Position numbers and translations under genes: made by a program. 64,000 nt of DNA from Gracilimonas mengyeensis (GTDB taxonomy: Bacteria > Bacteroidota > Rhodothermia > Balneolales > Balneolaceae). The stretch is taken from NCBI RefSeq assembly GCF_900182705.1, contig NZ_FXTP01000001.1, forward strand, positions 372,001-436,000, read 5' to 3'. This document shows, piece by piece, positions 28,780-35,357 of this stretch. Each line of letters begins with the position of its first letter. The first letter of the stretch is position 1. A model generated the notes under the pieces. The model saw only the letters and a program-made list of their open reading frames with translations, was not told the DNA's origin and did no database searches.

Positions 28780-29140
28780 TTTCTTTATGGGACATTATGC
28801 GTACTGGTTTACCATGATTTTGCTGGCCATTGGTTTATATGGCATGCTCATCAAAAAGAATTTGGTAAAAAAAACCATCGGACTTTCCATTTTTCAGGCA
28901 GGCGTAATCCTGTTTTTTGTATCCGTTGCCATGAAATGGGGAGCCACCGTACCGGTTAAAGCAGACGGATTACCCGTAAGCGAAGTATCCAATTACATGA
29001 ACGCCCTGCCCCACACCCTGATGCTTACGGCTATTGTTGTAGGGGTTGCCACTTTGGGCGTTGCTTACGCATTGATCATCAAGATTTACAACCGATACGG
29101 TACACTCGACGAAGAAGAACTTTTAGATAAGATTCAATGA
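28772..29140 (+). CDS. mrpC: Mrp antiporter subunit C (NuoK-like)
   Basis: 122 aa, three helices in the NuoK fold with the insertion typical of MrpC between helices 2 and 3. IGLYGMLIKKNLVKKTIGLSIFQ and NALPHTLMLTAIVVGVATLGVAYAL (the latter being the MrpC pattern PxALvLTaIVIg) are present. Its TGA overlaps the next ATG (ATGA). Confidence 0.95.
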   Translation: MLDFFMGHYAYWFTMILLAIGLYGMLIKKNLVKKTIGLSIFQAGVILFFVSVAMKWGATVPVKADGLPVSEVSNYMNALPHTLMLTAIVVGVATLGVAYALIIKIYNRYGTLDEEELLDKIQ

Positions 29141-30636
29141 CAGGATCTAATATACCGGCTTTAATACCCGCTACATACATCCTATTTGCCATCCTGATTC
29201 CCGTCATAGGGCTTTGGAGAAGCGAAATCACCCGTGCCCTGGCTCTGTTGGGCTCAGGAATCGCGACCTTCCTCTCTGCTTTAGGATTTATAAATTACAT
29301 CCAATCCGGAGAAGTAATCCGTTATTATTTTGGCGGATGGATGCCCCCAATCGGCATCGAGTTTGTATACGACGGTCTGGCTGCTTTCATCGTTTTGGTG
29401 ATCAATGCCATTGCCTTCCTCGTACTTATTCACTCCAAAGAAATCAGCAAGCTGGAATTTCCCGGCCGTAAGATGCCGTATTACACCATTTCTATGCTGA
29501 TGATGCTTGGATTCAATGGCATGGTACTTACGGGCGACCTTTTTAACCTCTACGTTTTTCTTGAGATATCGTCTCTCTCCAGCTATGCCCTCATTGCTAT
29601 CGGGTCAAAACGTGCACCCTACTCAGCTTTCCGTTATTTGATTATTGGAACCGTAGGAGGCTCATTGTACCTGCTGGGTGTTGGCTTTTTATATACGGTG
29701 ACGGGGACCCTCAATATTATTGACATGCACGCCATGCTTCCGCAGGTGATTGGTCACTCTGCTGTGGTAGGCGCCCTGATATTAATGGTGATTGGCGTAG
29801 GCGTAAAAGCGGCCTTATTCCCACTACACGGCTGGTTGCCCGATTCTTACACTTTTGCCTCTTCCACCTCATCGGCGTTGATTGCTCCGATAGGTACAAA
29901 GGTTGCCGCCTATATTTTGTTGCGCGTTATGTTATTCCTCTTTGGTGTAGAACTGATTGATGCCCAGCTGCCGGTAACTACCATTGTCGGCATTTTTGCC
30001 GGTGTTGGAATCCTTTATGGTTCTATCATGGCCATTGCCCAAAGCGAGCTCAAGAAAATGTTGGCTTACAGCTCGATATCGCAAATTGGATACATCATCA
30101 TGGGTATCAGCCTGGCCAATCCGTTTGGTTTTATCGGAGCGGTGTTACACGTACTCAATCACGCTTTAATGAAAGCCCTCCTCTTCCTTGTATCTGGAAG
30201 CCTGAGAACCAAAGAGGGACATTCGCTGATTACGAAATTTGATAACAGTTATCGCAAGAAATACCCCTGGACCATGGTCGCATTTACAACGGCTGCCATC
30301 TCTATGGTAGGCTTGCCGCCACTGGCCGGATTCTTTAGCAAGTGGTACCTGGCATTGGGAACCATCGAAAACAGCAACTGGATGTTGCTGGCGGTTATCC
30401 TGATCAGTTCGCTGCTGAATGCCGTCTATTTCTTCCGAATTCTTGAAAAAGTATATCTCAACAATCCCGATGCTGAAGAGGCCGACGACGCCGAAGCAGT
30501 ATCACCCCAAAATAATGAAGTGGGCTTCAGTATGATGTTCCCCATGGCGGTGATGGCTATCGGATTGTTGGTAGTAGGTATTTTCAACGCCTACATCGTA
30601 AATGTAATATTCACAATGTTTCCGGCAGGATTTTAA
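29137..30636 (+). CDS. mrpD: Mrp antiporter subunit D (MbhH/NuoN-like)
   Basis: 499 aa, about 14 helices. The ion-channel residues of NuoL/M/N-type proteins are present: Glu143 in helix 5 (FLEISSLSSYAL) and Lys224 in helix 7 (GVKAALFPLHGWLPDSY), plus LKKMLAYSSISQIGYIIMG and the later HVLNHALMKALLFLVSG. This position in the cluster corresponds to MbhH/MrpD. Overlaps mrpC by 4 bases; 20-base gap to the next. Confidence 0.93.
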   Translation: MTGSNIPALIPATYILFAILIPVIGLWRSEITRALALLGSGIATFLSALGFINYIQSGEVIRYYFGGWMPPIGIEFVYDGLAAFIVLVINAIAFLVLIHSKEISKLEFPGRKMPYYTISMLMMLGFNGMVLTGDLFNLYVFLEISSLSSYALIAIGSKRAPYSAFRYLIIGTVGGSLYLLGVGFLYTVTGTLNIIDMHAMLPQVIGHSAVVGALILMVIGVGVKAALFPLHGWLPDSYTFASSTSSALIAPIGTKVAAYILLRVMLFLFGVELIDAQLPVTTIVGIFAGVGILYGSIMAIAQSELKKMLAYSSISQIGYIIMGISLANPFGFIGAVLHVLNHALMKALLFLVSGSLRTKEGHSLITKFDNSYRKKYPWTMVAFTTAAISMVGLPPLAGFFSKWYLALGTIENSNWMLLAVILISSLLNAVYFFRILEKVYLNNPDAEEADDAEAVSPQNNEVGFSMMFPMAVMAIGLLVVGIFNAYIVNVIFTMFPAGF

Positions 30637-30656
30637 ACAGATAATTCACTCATCAC

Positions 30657-32141
30657 ATGGAGCTTACGTACATTCCTTTATTTGCTGTTCTTGTATCGCT
30701 GGCTGCGGTGCCGTTCATCTTGCTGAGTTCAAAAAAACCGAACCTCCGCGAGTTCTGGACCATCCTGGCTGGAGTGATCAAATTCTTGCTGGTACTCACT
30801 TTGTTACCCTCGGCCCTGCAGGGTAATGTCATCGAATTGCAACTGCTTGAAATTGCCCCGGATCTGCCATTGGTACTTCGGGCTGATACCTTTGGCGTCT
30901 TCTTTGCACTGATTGCCTCAAGCTTGTGGATCTTCACCTCTTTCTATAGCATTGGCTATATGCGCGGGCATCATGAGAAAAAGCAAACCCGCTACTTTGC
31001 CAGTTTTGCCGTCTGTTTGAGTTCCACCATCGGTATCGCCTTTTCCGGTAACCTGATTACCTTCATCATCTTTTATGAGATGTTGACGCTTGCTACCTAC
31101 CCGCTGGTAATTCACAGTGAAAACAAAAAAGCCATTGCAGCCGGTCGCAAGTATTTGACGTACACCCTGACCGCCGGTCTGCTCCTGATTGCTGCTGCTG
31201 GTATCACTTATTACCTCACCGGAACGCTTGAATTCCGTCCCGGTGGTATCTTCGGCGATGTAGAGCTGTCACAGCCGATGGCTATTACTATTTTCTTGTT
31301 ATTCTTAGGTGGTGTGGGCGTAAAAGCAGGCATCATGCCACTGCACAGCTGGCTGCCTTCAGCTATGGCCGCACCCACCCCGGTTAGTGCCTTGTTGCAC
31401 GCCGTAGCCGTAGTAAAATCCGGTGTATTTGGGGTGATAAGAGTGGTAGGCTTTATTCTTGGCCCTGACGTGATGGCTGAATTTGGGCTCAATGATATTT
31501 TGATGGTCATGGCCGGTATAACCATTATCGTGGCATCATTACTGGCTTTTGCCCAAGACAATCTAAAACGGCGACTCGCTTATTCTACCGTTGGACATCT
31601 CTCCTACATCGTACTGGGTGCCGCGTTGCTGACCGAAACCGGCCTGATTGGAAGTATCATGCATATTTCCACGCATGCTACCATGAAGATTACCCTGTTC
31701 TTCTGTGCGGGTGCTATCATGGTAAACTTGCACAAGTCGAACATCAGCAGTTTAAATGGAATTGCCAAAGTGATGCCCTGGACTATGGCGGCTTTCACCA
31801 TTGGTTCTATGGGACTGGCCGGATTGCCCCCTGTAAACGGATTTGTAAGTAAGTGGTTCCTGGCTACAGGCGCGCTGGAAGGCGGCATGTTCATCCCGGT
31901 AACCGTGTATGTAATTAGTGGATTATTGAACGTAGGTTACTTCTTCCCCATCATTCACCGCGCATATTTCAAGAAAGGCGGAGAAGAGCTGGAAGGACAT
32001 ACTGAGGCCTCACCCTTTATGGTGGTGCCACTGTTTACCACGGCGATACTGTCGATCCTGTTCGGCGTTTATCCCGATTTATTTTTCAATTTCTTTGATA
32101 TGGCTACCACTGTAGCATCAAGCATTTTTAACCCAATGTAA
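30657..32141 (+). CDS. Second MrpD/NuoM-like antiporter subunit
   Basis: 494 aa, about 14 helices. Glu141 (IIFYEMLTLATYPL), Lys223 (GVKAGIMPLHSWLPSAMAAPTPVSALLHAVAVVKSG) and LKRRLAYSTVGHLSYIVLG keep all the expected channel residues. It is not MrpA, since it lacks the C-terminal MbhD/MbhE extension encoded separately upstream. It probably supplies one of the antiporter modules that MrpA would otherwise provide. Confidence 0.9.
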   Translation: MELTYIPLFAVLVSLAAVPFILLSSKKPNLREFWTILAGVIKFLLVLTLLPSALQGNVIELQLLEIAPDLPLVLRADTFGVFFALIASSLWIFTSFYSIGYMRGHHEKKQTRYFASFAVCLSSTIGIAFSGNLITFIIFYEMLTLATYPLVIHSENKKAIAAGRKYLTYTLTAGLLLIAAAGITYYLTGTLEFRPGGIFGDVELSQPMAITIFLLFLGGVGVKAGIMPLHSWLPSAMAAPTPVSALLHAVAVVKSGVFGVIRVVGFILGPDVMAEFGLNDILMVMAGITIIVASLLAFAQDNLKRRLAYSTVGHLSYIVLGAALLTETGLIGSIMHISTHATMKITLFFCAGAIMVNLHKSNISSLNGIAKVMPWTMAAFTIGSMGLAGLPPVNGFVSKWFLATGALEGGMFIPVTVYVISGLLNVGYFFPIIHRAYFKKGGEELEGHTEASPFMVVPLFTTAILSILFGVYPDLFFNFFDMATTVASSIFNPM

Positions 32142-32143
32142 CT

Positions 32144-32359
32144 ATGAAAACCTGGCACTGGATAGCACTTGGCGTTGTATTCCTCATCAGTTTGGTTCTG
32201 GAATTCGGATTTATGGAAATCAAGAGTCCGCACTGGTGGAATCATATCCCGGCGTTTTACGCCATCTGGGGATTCATCGGCTGTGTGGCTATTATTTACA
32301 TTTCAAAATGGTTAGGAAAACTTTTCATCTTAAGCGACGAAGATTACTATGATCGTTGA
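32144..32359 (+). CDS. Small two-helix membrane protein within the Mrp operon
   Basis: 71 aa. Helices at about residues 5-25 and 35-55 flank MEIKSPHWWNHIPAFYAIWGFIG. It starts 2 bases after the second antiporter-like gene and its end overlaps the third by 11 bases, so it belongs to the operon. I recognise no standard Mrp subunit. A structural or assembly role in the complex is inferred from location only. Confidence 0.8.
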   Translation: MKTWHWIALGVVFLISLVLEFGFMEIKSPHWWNHIPAFYAIWGFIGCVAIIYISKWLGKLFILSDEDYYDR

Positions 32360-34076
32360 GCTGCTCACTGTACCCGCAATTATTCTGATTTTAGGAGCCC
32401 TGCTGCTCCCCCTTATACCTGAGCGTATTCGCAGCTCAGCTTTTCTACTATTTCCACTGGCAGCACTGGGCGTGCTATGGAGTTTGCCCGAAGGCAGTCT
32501 GCTGCAATTACCTTTTGCCAGTTATGAACTGCATCTGCTGCAGGTAGATCGCCTCAGCCGTATCTTCGGTACCATTTTCGTGATGATCACTTTTATTGGC
32601 GGTGTGTATGCGTTCCATATTAAGGATGTGGGCCAGCAAAGTGCCGCTATGGCTTATGCTGCCGGTGCATTGGGTGTTACTTTTGCCGGTGACTTCTTTA
32701 CCCTATTTTTCTTCTGGGAGATCATGGCTGCCACTTCCACCTATTTAATCTGGGCTCGCAAGACCGAAGCTTCCGACAAAGCTGGAATGCGCTATATCCT
32801 TGTTCACGCTTTTGGCGGCGGACTCTTACTCACCGGTATTTTGCTCCATCTTTCCAGTGGTGGTTCCTTCCTTATTGAAAATATTGAAGAGACCTATACT
32901 ATGGCCAGCATCTTTATGCTGACCGGTGTGGCCCTGAACTCTGCCATTCCACCACTACACGCATGGCTGGCTGACGCTTATCCCAAAGCAACTATTACGG
33001 GTGCCGTGTTTATGAGTGCTTTCACCACCAAATCCGCAGTATATGTTTTGATTCGATTGTTCCCCGGCTGGGATATCCTGGTATACTGGGGCGTGGCGAT
33101 GGCCCTTTACGGTGTAGTATATGCGGTATTGGTTAATGATATCCGTGAGATTCTGGCGTATCACATTGTAAGTCAGGTTGGTTACATGGTAGCCGGTGTT
33201 GGTATTGGTACCGAAATGGCCATCAACGGAACTACCGCTCATGCCTTCAGTCACATTTTGTACAAATCTTTGCTATTCATGGGAGCCGGAGCGGTTATCC
33301 ATGCTACAGGTAAAAGCAAGCTTACGGAGCTGGGAGGCTTTGCCAAGAAGATGCCAGTGATAGTCGGCTTGTATATGATTGGAGCTTTCTCCATTTCAGG
33401 ATTCCCGTTTTTCAACGGTTTTATTAGTAAGTCCATGGTGGTAAGTGCAGCGGGTTATGCCCACTTTGAAACCGTGATGCTGCTACTTATTCTGGCATCC
33501 ATCGGTACCTTTTTACACACCGGACTCAAGCTTCCTTACTTCACCTGGTTTGGAGAAAAGAAAAGTGAGTTTGATGTAGGCAAGGTACCCATCAACATGA
33601 AAATAGCGATGGGCTTTGGCGCTTTCTTCTGTACGCTCTTTGGTGTATATCCTGCCCTGCTCTACAATTATCTTCCATATGCGGTAGATTATCATCCATA
33701 CACCATCTACCACTTTGTAGAGATGATGCAAATCCTGGTGTTCACTTTTATCGGTTTCTGGCTGCTGCGCAAAAAGCTGGAAGGTACCCCAACCATTGCC
33801 ATCGATACCGACTGGTTTTACCGCAAGCCTGCAGCTGCCGTGCGTTACCTGTTGGTAGAAGTACCCAACAACCTATTTGGAGTAGCAGAAAAAGTGGCAC
33901 TAAGTGCTGCAGATAAACTCTCCGGACTTTCTAAAAATCCAATGCAGTATTTGCTTCCCTCCTTTGTTCACGAAGGACGAACCGTGAAATCCGACGGATT
34001 CAGTGCCCCGATGGGTGCGGCTTTGGCTTTTATCCTGTTTGGCTTCCTGGTAGCTAGTTTGGTTGTCCTTCTGTAA
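32349..34076 (+). CDS. Third MrpD/NuoL-like subunit with altered helix 7
   Basis: 575 aa, about 16 helices, with a C-terminal extension of roughly 80 residues ending in another helix. Helix 5 Glu124 (FFWEIMAATSTYL) is present, and Lys228 (TTKSAVYVLIR) in helix 8 is kept, as is the lateral helix region. The helix 7 lysine expected before PLH is Asn197 (ALNSAIPPLHAWLADAY), unlike the other two antiporter-like subunits of this operon. The stop is 12 bases from the operon terminator. Confidence 0.9.
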   Translation: MIVELLTVPAIILILGALLLPLIPERIRSSAFLLFPLAALGVLWSLPEGSLLQLPFASYELHLLQVDRLSRIFGTIFVMITFIGGVYAFHIKDVGQQSAAMAYAAGALGVTFAGDFFTLFFFWEIMAATSTYLIWARKTEASDKAGMRYILVHAFGGGLLLTGILLHLSSGGSFLIENIEETYTMASIFMLTGVALNSAIPPLHAWLADAYPKATITGAVFMSAFTTKSAVYVLIRLFPGWDILVYWGVAMALYGVVYAVLVNDIREILAYHIVSQVGYMVAGVGIGTEMAINGTTAHAFSHILYKSLLFMGAGAVIHATGKSKLTELGGFAKKMPVIVGLYMIGAFSISGFPFFNGFISKSMVVSAAGYAHFETVMLLLILASIGTFLHTGLKLPYFTWFGEKKSEFDVGKVPINMKIAMGFGAFFCTLFGVYPALLYNYLPYAVDYHPYTIYHFVEMMQILVFTFIGFWLLRKKLEGTPTIAIDTDWFYRKPAAAVRYLLVEVPNNLFGVAEKVALSAADKLSGLSKNPMQYLLPSFVHEGRTVKSDGFSAPMGAALAFILFGFLVASLVVLL

Positions 34077-34088
34077 GGAAACGATGTT

Positions 34089-34138
34089 AAGAGAAGAGGT
34101 AGCAAAAGAAATACTTGCTACCTCTTCTCTTTATTTTG
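34089..34138 (+). terminator. Strong terminator of the Mrp operon
   Basis: A perfect 17-bp stem: arms 34089-34105 and 34115-34131, 9-base loop, then TATTTT. It is the strongest hairpin in the window and lies 12 bases past the last Mrp stop codon. Confidence 0.92.
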
Positions 34139-34332: not shown

Positions 34333-35196
34333 ATGATAAAGAATATAGATCATTGCAAAAATTGCGGGAGCAAAAAGGTGATCAATTATTGCCCCAGGTG
34401 TGGATAAAAGGCGATCAGTAGAAGTCATTTCACTATCAAAGCTTTGGCCTTAGATTTTTTTCACCAGTTTTTTGGAGAGAATTCCCGATTAACCCGCACT
34501 TTCAAGGACTTCATCAATGCCGGGGTATATCCCAGGAACTGGCTTTCTTTAAAACATCAGCGCTATATCTCTCCTGTCAGGTTCTTTTTGATTATTAACC
34601 TGTTGTATTTTTTGTTGTTGCCACTGGGCGGTTTTGACGGTTTTACGACTCCTTTTTATTCGCAACTCAACGCTCAATACTACAGCGGTTCCATTGAAGA
34701 AATCGTCTTGAATCTTATTTCACAAAGTGGAATGAGTCAGGAGCAATTTATAGCCGCTTTCGACAGCCGGGTGACCGGCTTATCCAACTCATTGTTGATT
34801 TTAATGGCACCTATCGTGTCTTTTCTTCTGTTCGTCATCAACTTCAGGAAATCCCGAAAAGCCTATCACCATCTTGTAACTGGGCTTTCCTTTAGCAGTT
34901 ACATCATATTTTTGGCGCTTGTTGTTAATTTGATACTGGTTATAACCATCCAAATGGACCAATGGTTAAATACTTCCATAGCGCATTATATTGTAGATTC
35001 TACCATTTTTCCTGCCCAGATTATTATCACCACCCTCTATGGGTATTACTTCTTTAAACGGCTTTACAATGATGGCTTTTGGATTACCCTTTCCAAGGCA
35101 CTGTATGTCTCTTTTCTGATATTAATAACAGCCATATTAGCCTACCGCTTTTTGCTGCTTTGGATTACCCTGTACAGCGTAGTTTTGTTTCCCTGA
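34333..35196 (+). pseudogene. DUF3667 membrane protein split by an in-frame stop
   Basis: One continuous frame apart from TAA at 34405-34407. The first part encodes the family's zinc ribbon (CKNCG, then YCPRCG). The stop replaces the Gln that usually follows this CPxCG motif, where one base change (CAA to TAA) suffices. The frame continues KAISRSHF and into the DUF3667 body (RTFKDFINAGVYP near the start, then four membrane helices) to 35196. Without readthrough, a TTG at 34444 could give a 250-aa form lacking the ribbon. It could be a fresh pseudogene, readthrough or a sequence error. Confidence 0.75.
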
Positions 35197-35210: not shown

Positions 35211-35238
35211 GAACTCAGAACTCAGAACTCAGAACTCA
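35211..35238. repeat. Heptamer tandem array GAACTCA
   Basis: Four exact GAACTCA units just after the DUF3667 stop. AGAACTAAGAACTAAAACCTA at 35340-35358 is a looser extension. Confidence 0.9.
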
Positions 35239-35357
35239 GGCTCACCAATAAATGGATTTATCTCAAATCCAACTTTGTACTTGTTCCACATGCCCTGCAT
35301 GGAGAATAGCATCATTGATGAAATGAGTAGCCAATGCGCAGAACTAAGAACTAAAAC

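What the first reader, a model, noticed from the sequence alone, without database searches (positions are those of the whole stretch)
34333..35196. Intact DUF3667 frame interrupted by a single in-frame TAA right after the zinc ribbon
The reading frame upstream (zinc ribbon, ending YCPRCG) and downstream (membrane body) is continuous except for one TAA at 34405-34407, exactly where the family motif CPxCGQ expects Gln (CAA, one base away). No other stop or frameshift interrupts the frame. This is a recent nonsense mutation, a readthrough-dependent protein, or a base-call error. A ribbon-less product from TTG 34444 could also be made.
Basis: partly seen in the sequence, partly recalled or inferred. 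Interest (0 to 1): 0.6.

Follow-up and report, generated by a model that had tools for sequence, protein, structure and literature searches.

The report
Membrane-protein gene with one stop codon
A gene for an uncharacterised bacterial membrane protein (family DUF3667) carries one premature stop codon just after its small zinc-binding head while the rest is undamaged, which is best read as a recent, ordinary loss-of-function mutation rather than a special decoding trick.

Summary
At window 34333-35196 a DUF3667-type frame runs from an ATG through a Cys4 zinc ribbon, meets one TAA at 34405-34407 exactly where relatives have Gln or Glu (CPxCG[Q/E]), then stays open for 262 codons to the TGA at 35194-35196. 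The genome belongs to Balneolaceae. The two nearest orthologues (about 40% identity, other genera) are intact; genus mates have no copy at this locus. The body evolved under purifying selection for most of its history and is not accelerated against its sisters, so the stop is young: more than a few percent of neutral divergence would probably have added lesions. I found no support for programmed readthrough: no suppressor tRNA, no structure at the stop, and no relative with a stop at that column. A phylum survey found two other copies with a single stop in or near the ribbon, but six with lesions further downstream, so clustering is not significant (P about 0.09). Most likely a recent single nonsense mutation, possibly an unfixed polymorphism; a ribbon-less internal-start product and a base-call error remain possible.

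The parts
34333..34404 (+). Start codon and Cys4 zinc ribbon (24 codons, MIKNIDHCKNCGSKKVINYCPRCG)
   Evidence: Translation; weak ribbon matches such as DZR E 0.0085; aligns with the ribbons of intact orthologues
34405..34407 (+). In-frame TAA stop at the column that is Gln/Glu in relatives
34408..35193 (+). Uninterrupted membrane body, 262 codons; four hydrophobic segments at 34564-34644, 34771-34854, 34867-34968, 35074-35145
   Evidence: AlphaFold model of this body, mean pLDDT 82.7, all helical
34444..35196 (+). Possible ribbon-less reading frame from TTG 34444 (250 aa); use of this start is not shown
35194..35196 (+). Normal TGA stop of the frame
34089..34131 (+). Strong hairpin followed by T-rich sequence between the antiporter genes and this gene; probable terminator, so this gene is probably transcribed separately
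   Evidence: Fold -28.7 kcal/mol, z -7.9; the simple terminator scan did not list it

Best explanation
It is a copy of a sporadically distributed DUF3667 zinc-ribbon membrane-protein gene that was functional until recently and then took one nonsense substitution at codon 25. Shown: intact frame apart from one stop, intact orthologues with a sense codon there, and past purifying selection on the body. Inferred: translation from ATG 34333 stops after 24 residues, releasing a short ribbon peptide and no full-length protein. The allele is effectively null, either newly fixed or a strain polymorphism. The gene looks dispensable, because genus mates lack it at this site.
For: Only one lesion in 287 codons. 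Intact orthologues in two other genera. Window terminal branch 0.83 against 1.33-1.36 for its sister path. A neutral rate on the window branch fits worse by about 7 log units than a constrained one, and giving the window its own rate does not improve the fit. The body departs from outgroup-invariant columns about as often as intact orthologues do (28, 25 and 27 of 49). P(no further stop) falls to 0.05 at 0.08-0.105 substitutions per site, or 0.02-0.05 if frameshifts are counted at assumed rates. No copy in the genus mates at the locus. Broken DUF3667 copies occur at about 2% in the phylum.
Against: Nothing here shows that the product is absent. Belinky et al. 2021 (PMC7918605) argue that many single in-frame stops in bacterial genes are not pseudogenes. 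A ribbon-less DUF3667-like protein exists in the same genome (C13:9272), so a body-only product could work.
Confidence: 0.74

Rival explanations
1. Ribbon-less product: the membrane body is translated from an internal start (TTG 34444 or a non-standard start) and works without the ribbon.
For: The body is intact and gives a confident all-helical model without the ribbon. Natural ribbon-less or ribbon-damaged relatives exist: L003 has no ribbon, L011 has lost a Cys of the first pair. Two other copies with one stop in or near the ribbon keep an intact body (G063, G302).
Against: No obvious ribosome-binding site before TTG 34444 (sequence; such sites are weak or absent in much of this phylum, so this counts little). 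Stops are not significantly clustered at the ribbon: 3 of 9 lesions, P 0.09. An intact body is equally expected of a young mutation.
Confidence: 0.11
2. Base-call or consensus error: the genome has a sense codon at 34405 and the gene is intact.
For: The only lesion is one base. The assembly is a 33-contig draft.
Against: A substitution error in a consensus is rarer than an indel error (general knowledge); the assembly is 97.5% complete with 0.12% contamination. No reads are held, so this is not tested.
Confidence: 0.1
3. Readthrough-dependent protein: ribosomes decode TAA at a useful level and make the full-length protein.
For: Body under past constraint. The literature proposes frequent readthrough in bacteria (PMC7918605).
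Against: No tRNA with an anticodon for TAA among the 40 tRNA genes found; one of them is a tRNA-like gene with an odd loop. Folding at the stop is no better than shuffles (z -0.7 and 0.4). TAA is an ordinary terminator in the window. No listed survey match was found with a stop at this column.
Confidence: 0.04
4. Old pseudogene that has been drifting for long.
For: An in-frame stop early in the gene.
Against: No second lesion in 287 codons and no rate increase.
Confidence: 0.01

Closest known systems
DUF3667 family (Pfam PF12412), zinc ribbon plus membrane body, common in Bacteroidota
   Same: Cys4 ribbon, conserved segment after it, all-helical membrane body; nearest orthologues L006 and L021 score 43 and 38 bits
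   Different: Stop after the ribbon; score just under the Pfam cut-off (23.0-25.6 against 27)
Single in-frame stop codons in bacterial genes (Belinky et al. 2021, PMC7918605)
   Same: One stop, downstream frame intact and recently constrained; [quoted passage not shown]
   Different: Here only one genome has the stop; the paper's case rests on stops shared by orthologues
G063 and G302 DUF3667 copies with one stop in or near the ribbon
   Same: Single nonsense codon, intact body
   Different: Different positions (nine codons after the ribbon; inside the ribbon); G302 lies in another family of the phylum, so the events are independent

Membership tests
DUF3667 (PF12412) | Score above Pfam gathering cut-off (27 bits) | tested here: not met
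   23.0 bits in hmmscan and 25.6 in the genome search; its orthologues score 43 and 38
DUF3667 (PF12412) | Homology to accepted members along the whole body | tested here: met
   43% and 39% identity over residues 4-261 of 262 to L006 and L021; 236 bits to the profile A3 of relatives; grouped with them at 100/100 support
DUF3667 (PF12412) | N-terminal Cys4 ribbon joined to the body in one open frame (usual architecture) | tested here: not met
   All four Cys present, but TAA separates ribbon and body; so it is filed as an interrupted homologue, not an intact member
Ordinary recent nonsense mutation | Single lesion, intact relatives, past purifying selection | tested here: met
Ordinary recent nonsense mutation | Absence of functional product | not testable with these tools
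   Needs expression data
Programmed stop-codon readthrough | Stop conserved in relatives at the same column | tested here: not met
   Gln/Glu in all 20 copies compared; no listed survey match was found with a stop at this column
Programmed stop-codon readthrough | Suppressor tRNA or stimulatory RNA structure | tested here: not met
   one tRNA-like gene with an odd anticodon loop is unexplained

The most novel reading that the evidence does not exclude
The stop is a tolerated or regulatory break between ribbon and membrane body: the ribbon is made as a separate 24-residue peptide and the body from its own start or by rare readthrough, and DUF3667 genes repeatedly lose the ribbon this way.
Probability: 0.04. 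Interest if true: 0.45.

Novelty: new member of a known kind. Interest (0 to 1): 0.12.

Why it matters
Little by itself. It is one more clean example of a young single-stop allele, useful as a reminder that an in-frame stop with an intact downstream frame is what a recent mutation looks like. It also gives a rough count of broken copies of this uncharacterised membrane family across Bacteroidota.

Tried and rejected
Suppressor tRNA: the 40 tRNA genes found in the genome were read; none has an anticodon for a stop codon. RNA structure at the stop: not better than shuffles. Clustering of stops at the ribbon: first looked striking (window, G063, G302), but the other 'stops inside' were stops just before the start ATG (G031, G426, G435, G408, G454, G441, G404), and six copies carry body lesions (G457, G406, G481, G524, G488, G557), leaving P about 0.09. 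G018 is split at contig ends and was not counted. First scan of genome contigs with the body alone found nothing; the scan with alignment A2 found 22 relatives, none closer than the Balneolaceae copies already in hand. NCBIfam gave no family, the PDB sequence search only weak ribbon matches, and Foldseek no match at E 0.001, so the function of the body stays unknown. DUF3667 is named in only two papers of the library, once each.

Full report
What is there. The frame 34333-35196 (+) starts at an ATG directly after a TAA, encodes a 24-residue Cys4 zinc ribbon ending CPRCG, is broken by one TAA at 34405-34407, and runs on for 262 codons to TGA at 35194-35196. The other five frames hold 8 to 30 stops, and a 262-codon open stretch of this composition has a chance probability near 1e-6. 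The codon usage of the body is only weakly like that of its neighbours (log ratio 0.015 per codon, against 0.01 to 0.22 for six neighbouring genes), but the real frame is the best of the six. The body has four hydrophobic segments, and AlphaFold gives an all-helical model with mean pLDDT 82.7. No solved structure resembles it at E 0.001.

Which family. The body scores 23.0-25.6 bits against PF12412 (cut-off 27). Its closest relatives, in two other Balneolaceae genera (L006 43%, L021 39% identity), score 43 and 38 bits, and the three form one group with 100/100 support. It is therefore a divergent, interrupted homologue of DUF3667 genes. All 20 intact copies compared at the ribbon have Gln or Glu where the window has TAA. 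Three other DUF3667-type genes occur in the genome; one of them, C13:9272, lacks a ribbon.

Context. The gene lies between a cluster of antiporter-type genes (Proton_antipo_M, 29137-34076) and a GH115 glycosidase on the other strand. A strong hairpin (z -7.9) between the antiporter genes and this gene makes a shared transcript unlikely. In seven genus mates compared at the DNA level, similarity ends at about the end of the antiporter gene or earlier and none reaches the DUF3667 gene; in the nearest, G003, other genes follow. In searches with the body, genus mates gave only distant matches of about 25-34% identity or none. The gene has 39.7% G+C against 44.5% for the window. It is thus an accessory gene, acquired or lost sporadically.

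How old is the stop. The window branch (0.83) is no longer than the path to its sisters (1.33-1.36). A codon model on three sequences gives a ratio of about 0.08 for the window branch and 0.09 for the others, with no gain from separating them (2 delta lnL 0.15); fixing the window branch at 1 costs about 7 log units. Synonymous change is saturated there, so these figures only say that most of the branch was under constraint. With a kappa of 1 to 4, the chance of no further stop falls to 0.05 at 0.08-0.105 substitutions per site, or at 0.02-0.05 if frameshifts are added at assumed rates. A recent event fits.

Is it programmed. Among the 40 tRNA genes found, none has an anticodon for a stop; one tRNA-like gene has an odd four-base anticodon reading. 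The region around the stop folds no better than shuffles. TAA is the normal terminator of several neighbours. No listed match in the family or phylum surveys was found to share the stop column.

Does the position matter. In three partly overlapping surveys (roughly 150, 155 and 120 listed matches; two of the lists were cut at the best matches) three copies have a single stop in or near the ribbon with an intact body: the window, G063 (TAA nine codons after the ribbon) and G302 (stop inside the ribbon). Fetching the other flagged or short copies showed that seven flags were stops just before the start codon and that six copies have frameshifts or stops in the body. Three of nine lesions in the first 36 of 290 codons gives P about 0.09. 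Detection of late body lesions is incomplete, which would weaken the clustering further. About 2% of copies are broken, an ordinary background.

Verdict. A recent nonsense mutation in a dispensable DUF3667-type gene (0.74). A ribbon-less product from an internal start (0.11), a base-call error (0.10), readthrough (0.04) and an old pseudogene (0.01) are the rivals. Single in-frame stops with a constrained downstream frame are a described class in bacteria, reported to be short-lived (Belinky et al. 2021, PMC7918605).

Noticed in passing
window 35211-35239: Tandem heptamer (GAACTCA)n just downstream of the gene; the same repeat occurs at nine places in this genome, up to about 13 copies, while the backwards control pattern has no match.
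   Followed up: partly
G000:C8:210841-210916 (L162 42-117): A tRNA-like gene with an odd anticodon loop (ARAGORN reads 'ggcg') about 40 bases before a normal tRNA-Pro; genus mates match only the normal tRNA, and a partial second copy (91%) lies at C8:211336-211402.
   Followed up: partly
L003 (G000:C13:9272-9397): DUF3667-like membrane protein in the same genome with no zinc ribbon (24.4 bits to PF12412 in hmmscan, 27.3 in the genome search).
   Followed up: no
L011 (G013:C8): DUF3667 copy whose ribbon has lost a Cys of the first pair (CPTR) but is otherwise open.
   Followed up: no
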